A stretch of DNA of 24,730 nt from a virus: the IMG/VR virus record IMGVR_UViG_3300030380_001611, positions 1-24,730 of that record; one strand, written 5' to 3'. The notes under the pieces are model-generated. The model did not search any database. It was not told the DNA's origin and was given only the letters and a program-made list of their open reading frames with translations. The position numbers were made by a program, and so were the translations under genes. The number at the start of each line of letters is the position of its first letter. Within the stretch, counting starts at the first letter, position 1. Below, one piece after another: positions 1,221 through 12,374 of the stretch.

Positions 1221-3350
1221 ATGATATACAAAGTTAAAAGAAAGAATATGAAAAAACAACCTAGAAAGAAATTTCAAACTGGGGATGAAGCTAGAAAATT
1301 TGAAAATATTCCTACAGCTTCACAACCAGCTCAACAACAAATAGGTGCTAGACAACAAAGAGCTGATACTTTTGTTGCTAAACAAGTAGAAACACCTGAA
1401 GTAGCTACAACAGCTCAACAAACTTATACACCTCAAACAGTTCAAACTAATGAAATGTTATCAGGTACAACTATGGCAGCACCTACTGCTGTTACAGATA
1501 CAAGTATTTCTGCAGCTCCAATAACTGCAGCTACACCTGGAACATCTACACAGGTTGCTACTCCAGCTTCTTTAACTGCATCTACAATGACAGCTCAAAC
1601 AGGAACTGCTTCACAAGCTACAGCACAAACAGGTTCAGTTAGTACTCCAGCACAAGTTGCTTCAGTTACTGGAACATTAAGTGGAACTGCTACAGGTGCT
1701 ACAGCTACACCAACATCTTCTGCAGTTGCTCAAGCAGCACAAGGACAATTATCTTCAGGAGCATTAGCACAAGTTATTAGTGGAACTTCAGCAACAGTTA
1801 ATGGACAAACAGCAACTTTACCTGCAGATATTCAAGCAGCAGTTGCAACTAATCCTGCTCAAGTTACTGCAACAATTATGCAACAACCTACTGCTGTACA
1901 AGCATCAGTTGCTTCTTTACCTACAGATGCATTAGTATCTACACAGATTGAAAGTTTATTAACAGGTATTGATACAGGACAAATACCTACATGGGCAAGA
2001 GGTGCTGTTGAAAATGTTGAAAAGAATTTAGCAGCTAGAGGTTTAAGTAAATCTACAATAGCAAGAGAAGCTTTAGTAAATGCAATTATACAATCAGCAT
2101 TACCAATAGCTCAATCAAATGCTACAGCTCTACAACAAAGAGCTTCACAAAATTTAACAAATGAACAACAAGCTAGTGTTTTAACTGCTCAACAAAATTT
2201 TCAAACTCAGTTAGTTAATGCTGAGAATGACATGAAAGCTAAAATGTTAACTGGGCAATATGCTCAAGAGATAACTAAGCTTAATGCAATGAATAGTCAA
2301 CAAGCTATCTTAGCTTCAGCTAATCAACAACAACAAGTAAGATTAGCAAACTTAGCAAATTTACAACAAGCTGGTTTAACTAATGCACAGTTACAACAGC
2401 AAATGTCTTTAGCAAATTTAAGTGCTAATCAACAAACTGCTTTAGCAAATGCACAGACTACAGCAGGAATGGATGTTTTAAATTTAAACAATCAACAACA
2501 AACTGCAATATCTAATTCTAATTTATTTAGAACTTTTGAATTACAAAATTTAAATAATACTCAACAAGCTACTATGCAAAATGCTGTTCAATTAGCTACT
2601 ATGGATATGGCTAATTTAACTAATGCACAACAAAGAGCTGTATTAAATGCTCAAGCATTCTTACAAATGGATATGACTAATCTAACTAATACTCAACAAA
2701 CAGAAGTATTAAATACACAGAATAGACAACAAGCAATGTTATCAGACCAAGCTGCTGCAAATGCTGCAGGTCAATTTAATGCAACAAGTACAAATCAAAC
2801 TAATCAATTTGTAAATAGTTTAGCAGCTACAATCAATCAACAAAATGCTGCACGAAATGATGCAATGACACAATATAATATTAGTGAAGGAAATAGAATA
2901 GCTGCATTAAATCAAGGTAATAATTTAGAGGCTCAAAGATTACAAAATACTTTGAATACTCAAATAGGACAATTTAATGAACAATTAAATTTTAACAGAA
3001 ATCAATTTAATACACAAAACTCTTTAGCTATTGAACAATCAAATGTAGCATGGAGAAGACAATTAAATCAAGCTAACACAGCAGGAATAAATGCTGTTAA
3101 TCAAGCTAATGCAATGAATGCATTTAATTTAAGTAATCAGGCACTATCATTTGTATGGCAAGAAATGAGAGATGCAGCTAAATGGGAATATGAGTCTGCT
3201 CAAAGTGAACAAGAAAGACAAACAAATTTAGCTATAGCAGCTTTAGGAAACGAAGCTGTATCAGATTCTAATAGAGCAAAAACTTTAGAAACATTAGGTG
3301 GTTTTGCTTTAGATATATGGGAAAGAATAAGTCCACCTACGTCTAGTTAA
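1221..3350 (+). CDS. Large Gln/Asn/Ala-rich virion structural protein with 22-residue helical repeats
   Basis: 709 residues from ATG 1221; an in-frame ATG at 1248 is an alternative start. The N-terminal 50 residues are basic. About residues 60-215 are low-complexity Thr/Ala/Ser/Gln. A more ordered segment follows (about 255-310), with IPTWARGAVE, ARGLSKSTIARE and NAIIQSALPIAQSNA, a motif I recall from structural proteins of marine phages. Residues 400-509 are five tandem 22-residue repeats of the form L-x-N-x-Q-Q-x-x-x-x-N, then more Gln/Asn-rich helix. No catalytic motif is visible. The likely role is an internal virion or tail-associated protein with a long helical rod; in T7 the corresponding gene region encodes internal core proteins. 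Composition suggests an extended flexible protein, not an enzyme. Confidence 0.6.
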   Translation: MIYKVKRKNMKKQPRKKFQTGDEARKFENIPTASQPAQQQIGARQQRADTFVAKQVETPEVATTAQQTYTPQTVQTNEMLSGTTMAAPTAVTDTSISAAPITAATPGTSTQVATPASLTASTMTAQTGTASQATAQTGSVSTPAQVASVTGTLSGTATGATATPTSSAVAQAAQGQLSSGALAQVISGTSATVNGQTATLPADIQAAVATNPAQVTATIMQQPTAVQASVASLPTDALVSTQIESLLTGIDTGQIPTWARGAVENVEKNLAARGLSKSTIAREALVNAIIQSALPIAQSNATALQQRASQNLTNEQQASVLTAQQNFQTQLVNAENDMKAKMLTGQYAQEITKLNAMNSQQAILASANQQQQVRLANLANLQQAGLTNAQLQQQMSLANLSANQQTALANAQTTAGMDVLNLNNQQQTAISNSNLFRTFELQNLNNTQQATMQNAVQLATMDMANLTNAQQRAVLNAQAFLQMDMTNLTNTQQTEVLNTQNRQQAMLSDQAAANAAGQFNATSTNQTNQFVNSLAATINQQNAARNDAMTQYNISEGNRIAALNQGNNLEAQRLQNTLNTQIGQFNEQLNFNRNQFNTQNSLAIEQSNVAWRRQLNQANTAGINAVNQANAMNAFNLSNQALSFVWQEMRDAAKWEYESAQSEQERQTNLAIAALGNEAVSDSNRAKTLETLGGFALDIWERISPPTSS
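2418..2747 (+). repeat. Five tandem 66-bp units encoding 22-residue (2 x 11) repeats
   Basis: Within the 709-aa protein, five consecutive units of exactly 22 codons begin LSANQQ, LNNQQQ, LNNTQQ, LTNAQQ and LTNTQQ. Each has Leu at position 1, Gln-Gln at 5-6 and usually Asn at 11. The period is constant with no insertions, although the DNA has diverged. A 22-residue period equals two hendecads (11-mers), typical of straight right-handed coiled-coil rods. Looser Asn/Gln-rich helix flanks the block on both sides. Confidence 0.75.
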
Positions 3351-3363
3351 TTAAGTATTGACA

Positions 3364-3822
3364 ATGGTCAATAATGATGATATAATAGAGGTAATAAGAC
3401 TCTATAGAAATTTTGATAAATACAATCATCTTTCTAATAGAGATATAGCAAAACAAATTATTCCTTCTTTGTCATTGAATCAATACAAAATTTTTAGATA
3501 CCCAACTACTAATGTTGCATATGCATTTACTAATTGGGCATTTTTAAATAAAGAAGTTCAAGAACGATTTAAACAAACAGGTGTTCTTGAAAACTTAGAT
3601 TGGGATAGTGGAGATATTTGTTGGCATATAGAAACAGTAAATACTCATCCAACTAAGTTAAAAGAAATATATAAGTGGACAGCAGAAAGATTGTCAACTG
3701 ATATAAGTAATCATAATAAATATGTTTACTGGTTAAGAATGAATAAATCAGGTAAAGGAATAAAAAGATTTAATAAAATAAAAATATCAACAGGAGTAAA
3801 TAAATTTTTAAAAGGAAAGTAA
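3364..3822 (+). CDS. HlyC-like toxin-activating lysine acyltransferase family protein
   Basis: The ORF opens at a TTG (3358), but the ATG at 3364 is preferred, giving 152 aa. The order and spacing of motifs follow RTX-toxin acyltransferases (HlyC, ApxC; PF02794). Counting from the TTG they are: H24 (the catalytic His position of ApxC), an IIPSL helix, NQYKIFR at 41-47, VAYAFTNWAFLN at 53-64, and DWDSGDICWHIE at 81-92. In ApxC the second catalytic residue is Asp93, in W-F-I-D; here that position holds Glu92. Family members transfer a fatty acyl group from acyl-ACP to internal lysines of a protein encoded next door. The neighbour two bases downstream is a very Lys-rich, membrane-active virion protein. 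No RTX toxin is visible. Family membership is fairly firm; activity and substrate are inference. Confidence 0.8.
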   Translation: MVNNDDIIEVIRLYRNFDKYNHLSNRDIAKQIIPSLSLNQYKIFRYPTTNVAYAFTNWAFLNKEVQERFKQTGVLENLDWDSGDICWHIETVNTHPTKLKEIYKWTAERLSTDISNHNKYVYWLRMNKSGKGIKRFNKIKISTGVNKFLKGK

Positions 3823-3823
3823 T

Positions 3824-5059
3824 ATGGGAAGTGTATCACGAGTAATAAAGAAAACAACAAAAGCAGTAACTAAACCTTTAAGTAAAGCGTTTAAAGGTAT
3901 TGCTAAAGGTATTAAAAAAGTTGGTAAAGCAACTATGAGAGGTATAGCTAAAGTAAATAAAAAGCTAGGACCTTTAGGTAGTATTGCTTTAGCTGTTGCT
4001 ATGCCTTATGCATTAGGTGGTTTAAGTAATATGATTGGTGTTGCAGGAGGTAAAACTGGATTAATGAACTCAACCAATGTATTTCTTAAAGCTATAGGTA
4101 ATGTTGGTAATCAAATTAGAACAGGTTATCAAGGATTTAATAGTTTTGTAAGTAAAACATTTAGTAGTATTACAAATTCAATTAAACAAGGATTTTCTAA
4201 ATTTGCACCAAAAACTGAAGGTAATATATTTTCTAGAATTTCTAAAGGTGCTAAAAATTTATTTCAATCAGCAAAAGAAACTACTCAAAAGTTTTCTCCT
4301 ATTAAAGGTAAACAAGGAACAGTTCAAGTATCAGATAGTTTAGACCAAGTTTATACTATGACAAGTAAAGAAGCTGGTACAGCTATTGGTCAAGGTAGAT
4401 TAAATGTTTCTGATATAACTAAACAAACATTAGGAAGTGATAAATGGTTTGTACAAGGTAGTAAAGAAGCTGACAAAATAATTACTAATACAATTAATAA
4501 TGCTTATGCAAAAACTACATCTCAATATTCACCTGATGCTTTAAGATATTTTAATGATTTAAAATCAAAAGCAATAGATATGAAAACATATACTAATGAT
4601 GCAGAGATAGGAAATATTATAGAGAAGTATTCTACTAATATTGAAGTAGGTACTCCTGATTTAGATATATCTAAAACTATTGATATTGATTTAGGTAAAA
4701 CTGGTGATTACAATGTTTTAAATGAACAAGGAACAGAGTATGCTTTTAATGGTAATAACACATATGGTTCAGGAGATAAAGCTACAGGATTTACACAGAA
4801 AACTAATCTTGGTAGTGCAGTAAAAGGTTCAGTAAAAAGTTTATTAAAGAAAAATAAAAGTTCATCAATTGATATAAAACCATTAGAATTTAATTTTGGT
4901 TCAGATTCAGACACAATGACAGATATAACAGGTACTTATAGTGGTACTGATATATCAGGTTCAGCAGGTGGAAACTTATTAAAAGGAGTTTACTCTGATG
5001 CTGATAGAATGAAAATAATGAACTACTATAAGAATATGAATCTTATAGGTAGTAGTTAA
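3824..5059 (+). CDS. Lys-rich, membrane-active virion structural protein (411 aa)
   Basis: It starts two bases after the acyltransferase stop. The N-terminal 48 residues are amphipathic and carry about 13 lysines in regular spacing (VIKKTTKAVTKPLSK, FKGIAKGIKKVGK). A hydrophobic segment follows at about residues 49-75 (GPLGSIALAVAMPYALGG), then a long polar region with more Lys-rich amphipathic stretches (IKQGFSKF, ISKGAKNLF). I recall proteins of this type (basic start followed by GPLG..ALA.AMPYALGGLS) as virion components in many marine phages, with no assigned function. The arrangement suits insertion into the host membrane during DNA delivery. The adjacent HlyC-like enzyme could acylate its lysines; that is a hypothesis. 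Confidence 0.6.
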   Translation: MGSVSRVIKKTTKAVTKPLSKAFKGIAKGIKKVGKATMRGIAKVNKKLGPLGSIALAVAMPYALGGLSNMIGVAGGKTGLMNSTNVFLKAIGNVGNQIRTGYQGFNSFVSKTFSSITNSIKQGFSKFAPKTEGNIFSRISKGAKNLFQSAKETTQKFSPIKGKQGTVQVSDSLDQVYTMTSKEAGTAIGQGRLNVSDITKQTLGSDKWFVQGSKEADKIITNTINNAYAKTTSQYSPDALRYFNDLKSKAIDMKTYTNDAEIGNIIEKYSTNIEVGTPDLDISKTIDIDLGKTGDYNVLNEQGTEYAFNGNNTYGSGDKATGFTQKTNLGSAVKGSVKSLLKKNKSSSIDIKPLEFNFGSDSDTMTDITGTYSGTDISGSAGGNLLKGVYSDADRMKIMNYYKNMNLIGSS

Positions 5060-5070
5060 GAAAAGGATAT

Positions 5071-5247
5071 ATGGCAAAAAGTTCAGTAAACAAAGCAGGT
5101 AATTATACTAAGCCTAGTTTAAGAAAAAGAATATTTAGTAGAATAAAAAGTCAAGCATCACATGGCACAAGAGCTGGTCAATGGTCAGCTAGAAAAGCTC
5201 AAGCTTTAGCAAAAGCTTATAAAAAAGCTGGTGGTGGTTATAAATAA
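5071..5247 (+). CDS. Small basic protein with GQWSARKAQ motif (58 aa)
   Basis: ATG 5071 is preceded by AAAGGA at a suitable distance. The protein has NKAGNYTKPSLRKRIF, then RAGQWSARKAQALAKAYKKAGGGYK to the stop. The stretch NYTKP...R.R...-GQWSARKAQ-LAK-YK-GGGY is one I recall as widely conserved in phages and some algal viruses (possibly DUF5872-like; not verified). Strong positive charge and lack of hydrophobic segments suggest nucleic acid binding. It is the first of three short basic genes in a row among virion genes. Confidence 0.75.
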   Translation: MAKSSVNKAGNYTKPSLRKRIFSRIKSQASHGTRAGQWSARKAQALAKAYKKAGGGYK

Positions 5248-5259
5248 AAAAGGAAAATA

Positions 5260-5415
5260 ATGAAAAAAGAACTAACAAAAAGACAAAAAGAAACAATGAA
5301 AAGACATTCAAAACATCATACTAAAAAACATATGGCTATGATGACAAAAGAAATGTTAAAAGGCTCTACATTTGGAGAAGCTCACAAGAAGGCTAAGAAA
5401 AAAGTAGGTAACTAA
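5260..5415 (+). CDS. Small His/Lys-rich conserved phage protein (51 aa)
   Basis: ATG 5260 follows AAAAAGGAAAATA, which supplies a ribosome binding site. The product starts MKKELTKRQKETMKRHSKHH and continues TKKHMAMMTKEMLKGSTFGEAHKKAKKKV. I recall the pattern L-T-x-R-Q-x-x-x-[ML]-x-R-H-S-K-H-H-T-x-K-H-M from other marine phages. It is nearly all helix-forming and very basic. The function is unknown. Its stop overlaps the next start (TAATG). Confidence 0.75.
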   Translation: MKKELTKRQKETMKRHSKHHTKKHMAMMTKEMLKGSTFGEAHKKAKKKVGN

Positions 5416-5657
5416 TGGCATTAGCTGATTCACAAAGAAGTTTAAAAAAATGGAGTGAACAAAAATGGCGTACAAAGTCTGGAAAAAAATCGAGCATTAC
5501 TGGAGAAAGATACTTGCCTTCTGCTGCAATAGAAAATTTGTCTGCTGCAGAGTATGCTGCGACAACGAAAGCGAAAAGAGAAGGTAAAGCAAAAGGAAAA
5601 CAGTTTGTTAAACAACCAAAAGGTATAGCAAAGAAAACAAGAAAGTATAGAACATAA
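5415..5657 (+). CDS. Small basic conserved phage protein, WRTKSGKKS...GERYLP family (80 aa)
   Basis: The sequence reads SLKKWSEQKWRTKSGKKS, then TGERYLPSAAIENLSAAEYAATTKAKR, then a Lys-rich tail ending KKTRKYRT. I recall this combination (W..QKWRTKSGK, TGERYLP.AAI..LS..EYAAT) as a conserved family in phages, including cyanophages, with no proven function. Basic charge at both ends suggests DNA binding, perhaps as a packaged protein. Both ends of the gene overlap neighbours by one base (TAATG), so translation is coupled through 5260-6235. Confidence 0.8.
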   Translation: MALADSQRSLKKWSEQKWRTKSGKKSSITGERYLPSAAIENLSAAEYAATTKAKREGKAKGKQFVKQPKGIAKKTRKYRT

Positions 5658-8033: not shown

Positions 8034-11000
8034 ATGGCAGAACAAAATCAAATAAACACTTCAGCAAGTTCTGAATTTGATATATTTCAAAAACCAACTC
8101 CTATTATTTCTGAATCTGAATCCATTGTTGTACCACAAATAGAAGAACAAAAAACTAAAGAAGTAAAACAAGAAGAAGACGAATTTAGTATTTTTCAAAA
8201 ACCTACTATTAAAGTTGACCAACAACAAGAAGATGAGTTTAGTATTTTTCAAAAACCTAATCAATCAATTGTAAGCACTCCTCAAAAAACAAAAGAATTT
8301 AGTAACGCAGCCAAAATAAGATATGGTATTGATAAACAAAATACTTTCTTTGGTAATGCATATCGTGTTGCTAAAGCTGGAGTTCAAGCTGCATTTGACG
8401 CTGAAAAAGATTTTAAAGATTATATAAAATATAATTACGAAAAAGAACAATTAAAATTAAAACAAAAATATGGAGAGTTAGCATCAGGTGCTTATGATGA
8501 TGACACTTTAGTAAAAGCTGCAGAGTTTGCAACTTTTATGACAGACCCTTTTTATATTCTTGCTTACATGACTCCATGGGGAAGAGCAGCAACAGCTTCA
8601 TTTAAAGGATTAGCAGCCGTATCAGGTACAACAGTTGGACTAGATGTTATGTTAGACCAACTTGCTACAACAGGAACTATTGATGCAAAAAATGTTGCAC
8701 TCTCAGCAGGAGCTGCTTCAGTTCTTGGACCAGCATCTGTTAAAGCTTTTAATGGTATTAGTAAATTATTACCTGGTGCAGATAAAAGACAATTATTAAA
8801 AGTAATTGGTATTGTTGAAGGAAAAAAAGCAAAAGATTTAGGTATTAGTAAAGCTGAGTTTCATAAATTACAAAAGATAGCAGGTGATAAAGAAATATTA
8901 TCTTTAAATAAATCTATTAAAAATGCTGAAATAAATTTTGTTAAACCTATTGCAGAACAAACAAAAATATTTAATGCTGCAGAAAAAAGAATTGAAAATC
9001 AAATTGCTAAATTTAAAAAAAGTAAAGCTAAAAAATCTGTAGCAAAAGTTACTGCATTAGAAACTAAAAAACAAAAAGATGCAGAAGCATTTAAATCTGC
9101 TCAAAAGGCTTTTTGGAAAACACAAAGTAAAGAAGCACAAAAAGTAAATGAACTTATTGCTAAAAGAGAATTTACTTATTTAAAAAAATTAAAAGAATCT
9201 CAAAGTTTAACTCAAAATGTTGCACAAGCTGTAGTATCAGCTACAGTTAGACCTGCTTTAGGTGGTGCTATTGGTTATGGTTTTGGTAAATTGTGGGGTG
9301 GTGATGATGCTAATTTAAATAATTGGATGTTAGCTGGAGCTACTTTAGGACAACTCCAAAAGATGATACAAAAAAGTGGTAAAGTATTTGCTAATAATGA
9401 AAAAGGATTTTTAAAAAATATTATTTATAATGAAGCAACAAGATTATCTTTTCAAAAAGCTAGAGAATTAACTGCAACTACAACTTCTACAAAATTAAAT
9501 GCCTTTGGTGGACCTACTTCTGACTTTGGTAAAAGATTATTTCAAGAATTAGATTCTCCTTTTACTAAAAATTCTTCTTCATTTATTGCTGACAATATAA
9601 AACAAACATATGGTTCAAGAATTTTTAATATGTTGCAAGGTACTACAGCTCAAGAACAACAACTTGCATTAAATATTGTTAGAGGTTCTAAGAAAAAAGC
9701 AACACCAAAAGTTAATAAATTAGTTAGAGATATAAAATCATATTTAAATGATTTTTTAGGTGAGGCAAGAGCAGTAAATATTGGATTAAGAAATGATAAA
9801 GGTCAAAGAATTGATACAATAAAAGATTATTTTCCTAGAGTATGGCAATGGGATGCTGTTAAAAAAAATCCTGAAGAGTTTAAAAAAACTCTTGCTAGTA
9901 TTTTTAAAGAAGTTGGAAAGCCAGGTCAGAAAAAAAATCCTAAAGGAGCTGCAGAAGGATTTTATGAAACATTAAATAAAAGTATTGGAGATGGTTTTTA
10001 TAACAAAATTGCTATCAATGATATTGTAAGTAATATATTAGCAGGAAAAACATCTAATAAATCTATTATAAAAAATTTACCATTAGCTGATGCATTACAA
10101 ACAAAAAGAACTTTAACAGGACCTTATGCTAAAGTTGAAAAAATTTTAGAAGATAAAGGTTACTTAGTAAATGATGTTAGTTCCATATTAAATAATTTAA
10201 TTAATTCAAGTGCTAATTCAATAGCGTTTGCTAAAAATTTTGGTAATCAAGGACAATTTTTAAATACATATTTTAAAAGAATTGTTGATAAATATAAAGG
10301 TAATCCAAATGCTGGAGAGTTAGCTTCAAAAGAAATTGGATTAATTATGAAAAGTATTGATGGATTTTTTGATAGATATGGACAAGTAAGAAGAGGAGCT
10401 GTTCAAACAGGTGCAGGTATTTTATCAACTATAGCTAATTTAAATATGTTGGATAGAGTAACTATTGCTTCATTAGGTGATTTAGTTCAACCTTTTACAA
10501 ACTCAAATAATTTTACAAGTTGGATAAGAGCATTAAAAGATACAAGTATTAAATTAAAAAATCAAACAGGTGCTGCAAGAGACTTTGCCATTGCAAGTGA
10601 TAAAGCTGTTCAACAATCATTATTAAAAACTTTATCACCACTAGATGATGTAACTAATACAGCAAAATTAATGGGAACAAAAGGCACATTAAGAAAAGCT
10701 AACGAAGCTGGTTTTAAATTTATGGGTCTTCAATGGTTAACAGGTTTTGCAAGAAGATATGCTTATAATACTGGTGCAATAGATGCATTTATTTCATCAA
10801 AAAAATTAGCAACATATGCTTCAAGAAATAATTTAACTGATAATAAAGCATTAAGATTAATAGGTGATGTATCTAAATATGGATTATCCCAAAATCAAGC
10901 ATTGCGTTTAGGTAAATTTAATAACTTTGATGAGGCTATTAAAACTAAATTTGGTAAAGATACTTTAAATAATGCAGGAATTGTTGCTTCTAATAGAGAT

Positions 11001-12374
11001 GCATTAATACCTCAAGTATCAAATAGATTATTATTTACACAATCAAGAGACCCACTTGTTAGATTAATGGGTCAGTTTATGTCATGGACTTTAGCTAAGT
11101 CAGCACAAACAAATAAACTATTACAAAGAATTGAAAATGGTGATACAAGACAATTAGTAAAATTATTAGCAGCCGTTCCTGTATATGGTAGCATACAACA
11201 ATTAAGAGAGATTGCTAAATACGGAGAAGTTAGAACTGATTTAGATACTCAATCTGATAAATGGTTTGCCGAGTCTTTAAGATTGTCAGGTATAGCAGGA
11301 ACATTACCTGAATTATTTATAGGTAGATTAACAGGACCAGGTTCAAGAGAACCTTGGTATTTGTTTGCACCAGCATTTAGTATTTTAACAGATGCAGGAG
11401 ATATAGGTAAAGATGCTGCTTTAGGAGATTTTGATAAAGCATGGAGAAGATTTAGTGAAAGAATTGCTCCTTTACCAACATGGAGAAGATGGATTGAAAA
11501 ATTATTTCCAGGAATGGATTATAAAGCACCTATTCCTGAAAGTTCTTTTAATAAAAGAATTGGATTTAATACAGGAGATGTAGTAGATATAAATATGGCA
11601 GCTCAAAAATCTGCAGAAGAAGCTATGAAAGAAGGATTTCCTACATATCGAAATGAAAAAGGTGAAGATATTTCACTTAAAGAAATGGAAGCAAATATTA
11701 AAAAACAGGAGAAAGAAAAAATGAATATAAAAGATACAGTAAAAGCTACTGTGGTTGCTGGAGCATTGGCAACAGGAGTAAATGCTGATGTATCTAAAGC
11801 ACAAGATAATTTCTTGTTACCTAAAGAGAAACCTAAAGTAGAAGTAGTTCAAAAGGAAAAACCTAAAGACTATAGTAAACTTTCTGAGTTACCTGAAGAT
11901 AAAAAGAAATTTCTTTTAGATAGTGCTTCAGTAATATATCAGAACAATCAAGGTAAAGATGTACCTTCAGATATTTTAATTGCAATTGCATTAGAAGAAA
12001 CTGGATATGGTACTAGCAGATTCTATAAAGAAGGTAATAATTACTTTAATATGGTTGCTGAAAAAGGTGATGATAGAATAAAAGCAAAAGGTGATAACAC
12101 ACAAGTTGCTAAGTTTAAATCACCATCAGAGAGCTTAGATAAATTTTACACTTGGGTAGAAAATAAACCTCACTATGAAAATGTTAGAAAAACATTAGAA
12201 AAATATAAAGAAGGTGAAGCTACTAAGGGTGATATTATTGACGCAATCTCAGATACAGGTTGGGCAGAGAACCCAAACTGGTCTAAGAATGTAAAATCAA
12301 TACTAAAATCTAGAGTAAATGGCAAACACTCAGAAGAGTTGAAGAATCTTGAAAACTCACTATTTAAAAAGTAG
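8034..12374 (+). CDS. Very large internal virion protein with C-terminal glucosaminidase-like domain
   Basis: 1446 residues, close in size to T7 gp16 (about 1318 aa). The N-terminus carries three copies of EF(D/S)IFQKP at residues 14-21, 50-57 and 68-75. A long mixed helical region with a glycine-rich hydrophobic stretch (ALGGAIGYGFGKLWGG) follows. The C-terminus, about residues 1289-1446, resembles the FlgJ/Bax-type glucosaminidase fold (PF01832): VIYQNNQG, SDILIAIALEETGYGTS with candidate catalytic Glu1321/Glu1322, NNYFNMVA and SPSESLDKFYTWV. In T7 gp16 the cell-wall lytic domain is at the N-terminus; here it is at the other end. The likely role is an ejection protein that opens peptidoglycan during DNA entry. 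An embedded start at 11721 may also give a free lysin (listed separately). Confidence 0.8.
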   Translation: MAEQNQINTSASSEFDIFQKPTPIISESESIVVPQIEEQKTKEVKQEEDEFSIFQKPTIKVDQQQEDEFSIFQKPNQSIVSTPQKTKEFSNAAKIRYGIDKQNTFFGNAYRVAKAGVQAAFDAEKDFKDYIKYNYEKEQLKLKQKYGELASGAYDDDTLVKAAEFATFMTDPFYILAYMTPWGRAATASFKGLAAVSGTTVGLDVMLDQLATTGTIDAKNVALSAGAASVLGPASVKAFNGISKLLPGADKRQLLKVIGIVEGKKAKDLGISKAEFHKLQKIAGDKEILSLNKSIKNAEINFVKPIAEQTKIFNAAEKRIENQIAKFKKSKAKKSVAKVTALETKKQKDAEAFKSAQKAFWKTQSKEAQKVNELIAKREFTYLKKLKESQSLTQNVAQAVVSATVRPALGGAIGYGFGKLWGGDDANLNNWMLAGATLGQLQKMIQKSGKVFANNEKGFLKNIIYNEATRLSFQKARELTATTTSTKLNAFGGPTSDFGKRLFQELDSPFTKNSSSFIADNIKQTYGSRIFNMLQGTTAQEQQLALNIVRGSKKKATPKVNKLVRDIKSYLNDFLGEARAVNIGLRNDKGQRIDTIKDYFPRVWQWDAVKKNPEEFKKTLASIFKEVGKPGQKKNPKGAAEGFYETLNKSIGDGFYNKIAINDIVSNILAGKTSNKSIIKNLPLADALQTKRTLTGPYAKVEKILEDKGYLVNDVSSILNNLINSSANSIAFAKNFGNQGQFLNTYFKRIVDKYKGNPNAGELASKEIGLIMKSIDGFFDRYGQVRRGAVQTGAGILSTIANLNMLDRVTIASLGDLVQPFTNSNNFTSWIRALKDTSIKLKNQTGAARDFAIASDKAVQQSLLKTLSPLDDVTNTAKLMGTKGTLRKANEAGFKFMGLQWLTGFARRYAYNTGAIDAFISSKKLATYASRNNLTDNKALRLIGDVSKYGLSQNQALRLGKFNNFDEAIKTKFGKDTLNNAGIVASNRDALIPQVSNRLLFTQSRDPLVRLMGQFMSWTLAKSAQTNKLLQRIENGDTRQLVKLLAAVPVYGSIQQLREIAKYGEVRTDLDTQSDKWFAESLRLSGIAGTLPELFIGRLTGPGSREPWYLFAPAFSILTDAGDIGKDAALGDFDKAWRRFSERIAPLPTWRRWIEKLFPGMDYKAPIPESSFNKRIGFNTGDVVDINMAAQKSAEEAMKEGFPTYRNEKGEDISLKEMEANIKKQEKEKMNIKDTVKATVVAGALATGVNADVSKAQDNFLLPKEKPKVEVVQKEKPKDYSKLSELPEDKKKFLLDSASVIYQNNQGKDVPSDILIAIALEETGYGTSRFYKEGNNYFNMVAEKGDDRIKAKGDNTQVAKFKSPSESLDKFYTWVENKPHYENVRKTLEKYKEGEATKGDIIDAISDTGWAENPNWSKNVKSILKSRVNGKHSEELKNLENSLFKK
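8073..8258 (+). repeat. Three copies of an EF(D/S)IFQKP peptide motif
   Basis: In the 1446-aa protein, residues 14-21, 50-57 and 68-75 (DNA 8073-8096, 8181-8204, 8235-8258) read EF-D/S-IFQKP. The last two share the longer form EDEFSIFQKP. The linkers are Glu/Gln/Lys-rich and look disordered. Repeated short aromatic motifs in a disordered tail often serve as docking peptides; the partner is not known. Confidence 0.8.
11721..12374 (+). CDS. Possible nested in-frame gene: exported glucosaminidase/endolysin (217 aa)
   Basis: Inside the 1446-aa virion gene, codon 1230 is an ATG preceded by AGGAG (11707-11711) with a 9-base gap, as good as or better than most gene starts in this window. The peptide that would begin there reads like a Sec signal: MNIKDTVK, then a hydrophobic core ATVVAGALATGV, then N-A-D with a plausible cut after VNA. 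A Lys/Pro/Glu-rich linker and the whole glucosaminidase-like domain follow to the shared stop. This would yield a free, periplasm-directed lysin of normal endolysin size from the same frame. No other lysin is visible in the window. The motifs are seen; use of the start is inference. Confidence 0.4.
   Translation: MNIKDTVKATVVAGALATGVNADVSKAQDNFLLPKEKPKVEVVQKEKPKDYSKLSELPEDKKKFLLDSASVIYQNNQGKDVPSDILIAIALEETGYGTSRFYKEGNNYFNMVAEKGDDRIKAKGDNTQVAKFKSPSESLDKFYTWVENKPHYENVRKTLEKYKEGEATKGDIIDAISDTGWAENPNWSKNVKSILKSRVNGKHSEELKNLENSLFKK

What the first reader, a model, noticed from the sequence alone, without database searches (positions are those of the whole stretch)
3364..5059. HlyC-like lysine acyltransferase paired with a Lys-rich membrane-active virion protein
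A protein with the motif order of RTX-toxin acyltransferases lies two bases upstream of a virion protein whose first 48 residues hold about 13 lysines on an amphipathic helix, followed by a hydrophobic segment. In toxin systems the acyltransferase gene lies next to its target and fatty-acylates internal lysines so the target can enter membranes. By analogy this phage may lipidate a DNA-ejection protein to help it penetrate the cell envelope. Motifs and gene order are seen; the enzyme-substrate link is inference.
Basis: partly seen in the sequence, partly recalled or inferred. Interest (0 to 1): 0.8.

Follow-up and report, generated by a model that had tools for sequence, protein, structure and literature searches.

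The report
Phage enzyme may lipidate virion N-termini
Marine SAR11-type phages carry a relative of the enzyme that attaches fatty acids to bacterial toxins, and where that gene is present the neighbouring virion protein usually begins Met-Gly-small residue, which suggests that the phage attaches a fatty acid to the front end of its own entry protein.

Summary
In detail: the 152-aa protein is a real HlyC-fold acyltransferase relative, one base upstream of a Lys-rich, probably virion, protein. The pairing is real, but the evidence points to a different target. In three unrelated protein families, what tracks the enzyme is the extreme N-terminus. With the enzyme directly upstream, proteins mostly begin Met-Gly-[Ser/Gly/Ala/Asn]; relatives without it mostly begin Met-Gly-[Phe/Trp/Leu/Ile] or Met-Phe/Tyr/Pro. 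Among 71 readable tail-tip J loci found by J sequence alone: 30 of 30 with the enzyme, 0 of 41 without. No J lysine present in 90% of enzyme-positive proteins behaves this way; enzyme-positive J proteins have fewer N-terminal lysines. The catalytic His of toxin acyltransferases is Tyr, Trp or Phe in 64 of 65 aligned sequences; the catalytic Asp stays Asp/Glu in 64 of 65. Best reading: a phage N-terminal-glycine acyltransferase, like eukaryotic N-myristoyltransferase in logic, lipidating entry proteins. This is inference; no modification has been seen. Exceptions: one J subclade plus two J proteins, two Met-Gly-Lys proteins, two outlier loci, and one contig with the motif but no enzyme. Nine of 30 Lys-rich proteins without an adjacent enzyme also have the motif; for most the relevant site is off the contig.

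The parts
3364..3822 (+). HlyC-fold acyltransferase gene, 152 aa (putative N-terminal-glycine acyltransferase)
   Evidence: PF02794 55.4 bits; AF2 model pLDDT 91.5, ApxC Z 16.0
3421..3423 (+). Tyr20 codon, in the column aligned with the catalytic His of ApxC; Y43 W18 F3 H1 of 65 aligned sequences
   Evidence: HMM alignment and column counts
3631..3633 (+). Glu90 codon, in the column aligned with the catalytic Asp of ApxC; D46 E18 Q1 of 65
3824..5059 (+). Lys-rich, probably membrane-active (perhaps ejected) protein, 411 aa, putative substrate
   Evidence: 13 Lys in residues 1-48, hydrophobic 51-67; relatives
3827..3832 (+). Gly2-Ser3 codons, the enzyme-linked N-terminal signature MG[GSAN]
3974..4024 (+). 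hydrophobic segment, residues 51-67 of the 411-aa protein
1221..3350 (+). 709-aa Gln/Ala/Thr-rich protein; in many relatives a gene of about 700 aa lies upstream of the enzyme gene, or directly upstream of the Lys-rich gene where no enzyme gene is adjacent

Best explanation
The 152-aa protein is a phage branch of the HlyC/ApxC GNAT-fold acyltransferases that has changed its target. After the host removes Met1, it transfers an acyl chain (probably a fatty acid from acyl-ACP) to the N-terminal glycine of one phage protein: here the Lys-rich 411-aa protein, in other phages the tail-tip hub J or a third entry protein. The lipid would anchor the protein's N-terminal membrane-active segment in the host envelope during DNA entry. 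Phages without the enzyme use a bulky hydrophobic residue at position 2 or 3 of the same protein instead. Shown here: fold, homology, gene pairing, and the switch of residue 3 with enzyme presence in three protein families. Inferred: that the enzyme is active, that the acceptor is the Gly2 amine, that the acyl chain is long, and the role in entry.
For: Three downstream families that did not link to each other by BLAST at E 1e-5 have Gly2 when the enzyme gene is directly upstream: Lys-rich 18 of 18, third family 17 of 17, J 25 of 28 90%-identity representatives (residue 3 is G/S/A/N in all but two of these, both J). J loci found by J sequence alone, not dereplicated: MG[GSAN] in 30 of 30 with the enzyme, 0 of 41 without (71 of 80 loci usable). 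Larger dereplicated J set: 35 of 41 versus 0 of 40. Lys-rich family: 22 of 24 with adjacent enzyme versus 9 of 30 without adjacent enzyme; leaving out 7 of unknown status and adding HTVC103P and HTVC104P, 25 of 27 versus 1 of 22. Third family: HlyC-positive query, all 19 newly fetched loci have the enzyme and MGS; HlyC-negative query, 0 of 73 loci have the enzyme in the fetched stretch and all 72 whose start was read begin MG[FLIP] or MP. Trees: enzyme state needs 6 changes in J (3 forced by starred branches) and 6 in Lys-rich (4 forced), and in no starred pair did the residue go the other way. Residue 3 is the most discriminating of residues 2-16 in J and the top residue class of the J and Lys-rich alignments; no lysine present in at least 90% of enzyme-positive J falls below 78% in enzyme-negative J. 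Base rate of MG[GSAN]: 2 of 401 other ORFs versus 30 of 39 downstream ORFs. Where the enzyme gene is elsewhere in the genome, the Lys-rich protein keeps MGS (HTVC103P, HTVC104P, L339); a relative whose early site lacks the enzyme gene has MGW (L348).
Against: No modification has been observed. The catalytic His is replaced by Tyr/Trp/Phe in 64 of 65, so activity is not assured. Enzyme-positive exceptions: J clade L121/L123/L125/L132 begin MI or MT, L140 MGL, L149 MGF; L330 and L341 begin MGK; L058/L059 are followed by an MFDW protein. Enzyme-negative exception: L383 begins MGS although its early site has no enzyme gene and none was found on the 42-kb contig (its Lys-rich gene is frame-broken). 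Nine of 30 Lys-rich proteins without adjacent enzyme are MG[GSAN]. Some lysines partly track the enzyme: in the Lys-rich family two N-terminal columns (0.92 versus 0.48; 0.88 versus 0.33), in J one column (0.51 versus 0.03). In the third family many columns differ between the two groups, so it does not single out residue 3. Enzyme and N-terminal codons are adjacent, so joint recombination could help link them. Starred pairs are too few within one family for a sign test to reach 0.05. 'Without enzyme' mostly means none in a fetched stretch or contig fragment.
Confidence: 0.5

Rival explanations
1. One reading: the enzyme acylates internal lysines of its neighbour, as HlyC does with HlyA, and the Lys-rich helix is the target.
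For: The characterised relatives described in the passages read (HlyC, CyaC, CdiC) acylate internal Lys (PMC8339906, PMC8510554). Lysines K21, K32, K35 and K47 are invariant in the nine Lys-rich proteins. Two N-terminal Lys columns of that family are commoner with the enzyme (0.92 versus 0.48; 0.88 versus 0.33).
Against: Of six Lys columns present in at least 90% of enzyme-positive Lys-rich proteins, four are at least 90% in enzyme-negative ones too and the others 48% and 76%; Lys-rich homologues without adjacent enzyme are as Lys-rich. Enzyme-positive J proteins L003, L207 and L226, all MGG, have no Lys in residues 1-40. No highly conserved Lys column tracks the enzyme in J, unlike CdiA, whose target Lys is substituted in the three cdiC-less clusters named in PMC8510554.
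Confidence: 0.2
2. The enzyme modifies the N-terminal Gly but with a short acyl group (for example acetyl), protecting or capping the N-terminus rather than anchoring it.
For: The model also resembles N-terminal acetyltransferases such as RimI, Ard1, Naa80 and NatD (Z 8.9-9.4, among many GNATs). In phage DSL-LC06 the same gene slot holds a GNAT acetyltransferase and J begins MS.
Against: The closest structure by far is ApxC (Z 16.0 versus 10.8 and below), a fatty-acyl enzyme; the swap between small residue plus enzyme and bulky hydrophobic residue without enzyme fits a lipid better.
Confidence: 0.12
3. The protein has lost catalysis and serves as a chaperone or structural partner that binds the MG-small N-terminus of the virion protein.
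For: Catalytic His not conserved.
Against: The catalytic acid is Asp/Glu in 64 of 65 and Q40, W58 and G83 are invariant. His-to-Ala variants of ApxC and CdiC keep some activity (PMC8510554). The enzyme gene can sit far from its presumed target.
Confidence: 0.12
4. Hitch-hiking: the enzyme gene and the adjacent first codons of the virion gene move together by recombination, without a functional link.
For: In the listed representatives the two genes lie between a 17-base overlap and a 12-base gap.
Against: The same signature occurs in three unrelated proteins, and is kept where the enzyme gene is about 17 kb away.
Confidence: 0.06

Closest known systems
Toxin-activating lysine acyltransferases (HlyC, CyaC, ApxC; Pfam PF02794)
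   Same: Fold (ApxC Z 16.0), family profile, gene often beside the presumed substrate, conserved catalytic Asp/Glu
   Different: Catalytic His replaced by Tyr/Trp/Phe in 64 of 65; neighbour has no RTX match; the covarying feature is the substrate N-terminus
CdiC of class IV contact-dependent inhibition (PMC8510554)
   Same: HlyC relative lipidating a bacterium-targeting delivery protein; substrate site covaries with enzyme presence
   Different: CdiC acylates Lys1467 with 3-hydroxydecanoate and has the His/Asp dyad; the phage system covaries with residue 3 after Gly2
Eukaryotic N-myristoyltransferase and its viral substrates (for example picornavirus VP4; recalled, not from a call)
   Same: Substrate begins Met-Gly with a small residue 3; a membrane-active N-terminus follows; GNAT-type fold (recalled)
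   Different: No homology to NMT shown here (no NMT row in the 50 shown, which is inconclusive); enzyme is phage-encoded and HlyC-related; residue 6 is mostly Lys or Arg, not the small residue of the recalled NMT preference
T7 gp7.3/gp14 ejection proteins (PMC11784390)
   Same: Small podophage proteins ejected early; gp7.3 has a positively charged N-terminus; third-family protein L025 matches PF11653 weakly (18.1 bits, below the cut-off of 25)
   Different: No lipidation in the passages read; the window protein has no such Pfam match

Membership tests
HlyC/TAAT (PF02794) | Sequence profile over curated cut-off | tested here: met
   55.4 bits against 25; 6 of 6 other phage members tested are over the cut-off (56.9-88.2 bits)
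HlyC/TAAT (PF02794) | ApxC fold | tested here: met
   pLDDT 91.5; Foldseek E 1e-7; Z 16.0, 2.4 A, 132 residues
HlyC/TAAT (PF02794) | Catalytic His of the His/Asp dyad | tested here: not met
   Aligned column Y43 W18 F3 H1 of 65; the one His is Nostoc L228, beside RTX-like repeats
HlyC/TAAT (PF02794) | Catalytic Asp of the dyad | tested here: met
   D46 E18 Q1 of 65; Glu in the window protein
HlyC/TAAT (PF02794) | Adjacent RTX protoxin substrate | tested here: not met
   Neighbour has no RTX match
HlyC/TAAT (PF02794) | Acyl-ACP donor and acyl-lysine product | not testable with these tools
   Needs biochemistry or mass spectrometry
N-myristoyltransferase | Substrate begins Met-Gly with small residue 3 | tested here: met
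   as a covarying signature with exceptions, not a shown modification
N-myristoyltransferase | Homology to NMT | tested here: inconclusive
   No NMT in the 50 rows shown
N-myristoyltransferase | Acyl transfer to the Gly2 amine | not testable with these tools
   Needs mass spectrometry

The most novel reading that the evidence does not exclude
Marine phages encode their own N-terminal-glycine fatty-acyltransferase, evolved from the toxin-activating lysine acyltransferase family, and build virions whose entry proteins carry an N-terminal lipid. This would be a bacterial-virus counterpart of the myristoylated penetration proteins of animal viruses, with a phage-encoded enzyme. It would serve at least three unrelated entry proteins in podovirus-like and siphovirus-like phages.
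Probability: 0.45. Interest if true: 0.93.

Novelty: new variant of a known kind. Interest (0 to 1): 0.82.

Why it matters
If true, it gives phages a lipid-anchored entry mechanism comparable to that of animal viruses, an N-terminal-glycine fatty-acyltransferase outside eukaryotes (I know of none; recalled), and a concrete hypothesis for how phages of the abundant SAR11 bacteria cross the envelope. It also shows how an enzyme's target can be sought by covariation of enzyme presence with substrate residues.

Tried and rejected
Lysine as the covarying site: not supported for J; partly tracking Lys columns exist (J one at 0.51 versus 0.03; Lys-rich two N-terminal ones), and an ancestral, always-present lysine is not excluded. 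Obligate adjacency: rejected (early-type loci). MG start alone as the signal: rejected, because many enzyme-negative homologues also start MG; the signal is residue 3. Coding overlap between the two genes forcing the MGS codons: rejected, because MG-small occurs with gaps up to +12 bases, with a 1-base overlap, and with the genes about 17 kb apart. An enzyme remnant at the empty early site of L348: tblastn gave only two chance-like matches of 7 and 13 residues.

Prediction test that mostly could not be read (prediction noted): MGS/MGG proteins without adjacent enzyme (10 contigs) should have it elsewhere on the contig. Found in 1 of 10 (L339). Of the other nine, only L349 and L383 reach the primase and SSB genes; L349 ends inside the neighbouring gene, before the enzyme's site; L383 includes the site and lacks the enzyme. 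The other seven do not show these genes. The enzyme-negative prediction (18 contigs with MG[FLWIK] or MF): 0 of 18 have it, but of the three tested for the early genes (L344, L345, L348) only L348 includes the site.

Weak points of my own counts. One search used a start-finding rule with a bug (in-frame stops) and is replaced. In one search some third-family enzyme-positive rows were picked with a pattern that includes MGS, so its 28 of 28 (against 0 of 51) is biased; searches do not have that bias, but some loci lie on contigs already held. One of six seed patterns of the scan was MGFFKKIF, which favours MGF proteins. The alignment misplaces part of the J and third-family N-termini, so J position 3 is better read. 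In one search, L356 (5' end cut) counts as 'not adjacent'. One search's 71 loci and one search's 161 loci are not dereplicated. Rows dropped: 6 of 167; 12 of 125; 6 of 74 loci; 8 more rows in the second J tree. The hydrophobic segment is not peculiar to enzyme-positive proteins and in J is no stronger than the strongest stretch elsewhere in the protein. The AF2 model of the 411-aa protein is poor (mean pLDDT 51.8) and was not searched.

Literature: in the listings (open-access library only) I saw no paper on a phage HlyC-like enzyme or on N-terminal fatty acylation of a phage protein; 'acyltransferase' occurs zero times in the main texts of PMC8528129 and PMC10504331 (HTVC103P is named there). 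The GenBank records of six pelagiphages already name the gene 'toxin-activating lysine-acyltransferase' or, in one, a putative RTX toxin acyltransferase family protein. The ApxC structure paper is not held. Papers seen: PMC8510554 passages and its Discussion; PMC8339906, PMC11784390, PMC8528129, PMC10504331 and PMC7029224 passages only; others in listings only. NMT rules, methionine aminopeptidase specificity and animal-virus examples are recalled.

Full report
The observation. The window is one IMG/VR record of 24,730 bases. ORF 3364-3822 gives 152 aa; one base later ORF 3824-5059 gives 411 aa. The first is a clear member of the PF02794 superfamily (55.4 bits, cut-off 25). Its model (pLDDT 91.5) matches ApxC at Z 16.0 with 2.4 A over 132 residues, and the next structures are at Z 10.8 and below, mostly GNATs. 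The second has 13 Lys in its first 48 residues, a strong helical moment and a hydrophobic stretch at 51-67. Other window genes fit a virion module: a structural or tail-fibre protein at 4-900 and a 1446-aa protein with a C-terminal glucosaminidase domain. HTVC103P-type pelagiphages, which carry close relatives of both genes, have an HMO-2011-type morphogenesis module (PMC8528129, passages).

Where the enzyme occurs. In 50,697 phage records tblastn with two of its members finds it in the same 6, all pelagiphages. In GTDB genomes one scan confirmed two hits: a contig whose genes look like one of these phages, and a Nostoc gene beside RTX-like repeats.

Neighbours. Of 167 loci with the enzyme (some from the same contig), 161 had a readable downstream ORF of at least 60 aa; residue 2 is Gly in 122. 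The other 39 are 30 early-type loci followed by a 93-107-aa protein (82 aa in one cut locus), 7 J proteins of one clade, and 2 outliers. The downstream proteins fall into families that do not link by BLAST at E 1e-5: a Lys-rich family (window), a J family (phrog_31 central tail fibre J, E 1e-87), and a third family (weak tape-measure and T7 gp7.3-like matches). Among 90%-identity representatives, MG followed by G, S, A or N is found in 18 of 18 Lys-rich, 17 of 17 third-family and 23 of 28 J proteins. Elsewhere in these loci MG[GSAN] is rare: 2 of 401 ORFs.

The natural experiment. J homologues without the enzyme, with the same L gene upstream, begin MGF, MGW, MFK, MFN, MYN, MPF and the like. 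In the 80 loci found by J sequence alone, whose seed patterns avoid the first residues, 71 could be read: 30 with the enzyme, all MG[GSAN]; 41 without, none. In the larger dereplicated set it is 35 of 41 against 0 of 40 (Fisher 5e-17, which ignores kinship). On the J tree the enzyme state changes at least 6 times on the best tree, 3 forced by starred branches; residue class goes the same way in 2.7 of 3 starred pairs on average and never the other way. A careful tree without eight long or distant rows gave 4 changes and 2 starred pairs, the same way in nearly every pairing. In the Lys-rich family the enzyme state changes 6 times, 4 forced, with 3 of 4 pairs the same way and none opposite. The third family shows the same switch: MGS or MGA with the enzyme, MGF, MGL, MGI, MGP or MP without, including the complete phage psg01 (MGF), in which none of three tblastn queries found the enzyme. 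HTVC027P, likewise without a hit, begins MA.

Lysine or N-terminus. In the CdiC study, clusters that lack cdiC have substitutions at the target lysine (PMC8510554, Discussion). The same test here picks residue 3: it discriminates best among residues 2-16 of J and heads the whole-alignment ranking in J and the Lys-rich family; the third family, split into two deep groups, is uninformative. In J, lysines present in at least 90% of enzyme-positive proteins are present in 78% or more of enzyme-negative ones; one less conserved lysine is 51% against 3%. In the Lys-rich family two N-terminal lysine columns are commoner with the enzyme (0.92 versus 0.48 and 0.88 versus 0.33), weaker than residue 3 (0.92 versus 0). 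Three MGG-type enzyme-positive J proteins have no Lys in their first 40 residues.

The enzyme itself. Toxin acyltransferases use a His/Asp dyad (PMC8510554). The aligned proteins keep the acid (D46 E18 Q1 of 65) but have Tyr, Trp or Phe at the His position in 64 of 65. His-to-Ala variants of ApxC and CdiC keep some activity, so loss of His does not mean loss of function, but it sets the phage branch apart. I therefore do not file it as a toxin-activating lysine acyltransferase; it works, I think, like an N-terminal acyltransferase built on that fold.

Early-type loci. In HTVC103P and HTVC104P the enzyme lies just before a small gene and the single-strand-binding protein gene, about 17 kb from the Lys-rich protein, which still begins MGS. 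Contig L339 repeats this. Contig L348, with the same early genes but no enzyme between them, has MGW. Contig L383 has MGS with no enzyme at that site or elsewhere on 42 kb; its Lys-rich gene is frame-broken, so this stands as one result against. Other MGS contigs without adjacent enzyme do not reach the site.

How it may work. I infer that Met1 is removed because residue 2 is Gly (specificity of methionine aminopeptidase, recalled), and the enzyme acylates the exposed amine. The enzyme-positive proteins have a hydrophobic segment in the first 100 residues (medians start at residues 18 to 51), as the enzyme-negative ones do, so a lipid would add an anchor where enzyme-negative relatives place Phe or Trp. 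The stage (outer-membrane attachment, channel formation) is unknown.

Verdict. Observation confirmed; the pairing is real and the lipidation idea is plausible, but the target is more likely the N-terminal glycine than the lysines. The modification itself needs mass spectrometry.

Noticed in passing
L067:2974-3459 (phage DSL-LC06): A GNAT acetyltransferase (PF00583, 38.1 bits) sits in the same slot between the L-like and J-like tail genes, and J begins MSKV; Roseobacter phages have DUF6950 there. The slot may host different N-terminal-modifying enzymes.
   Followed up: partly
L121, L123, L125, L132 (HlyC-positive J clade): J begins MIDLF or MTNYF although the enzyme is directly upstream; the sister protein L140 begins MGLDPVTA where these have SG[AF]DP internally.
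   Followed up: partly
window 5071-5657: Three small very basic proteins (58, 51 and 80 aa) follow the Lys-rich gene; role unknown.
   Followed up: no
window 8034-12374: 1446-aa protein with a C-terminal glucosaminidase domain (PF01832, 53.5 bits), probably an ejected muralytic protein.
   Followed up: no
L058/L059 7887-8402: The strongest PF02794 match among the 7 phage members scanned (L058, 88.2 bits) has a His next to the catalytic column and a different neighbourhood (MFDW protein, then an MGIF protein).
   Followed up: partly
L383 / G010:C1:22963-24216: Lys-rich gene split over several frames on this contig; may be sequencing error or a decayed gene.
   Followed up: no
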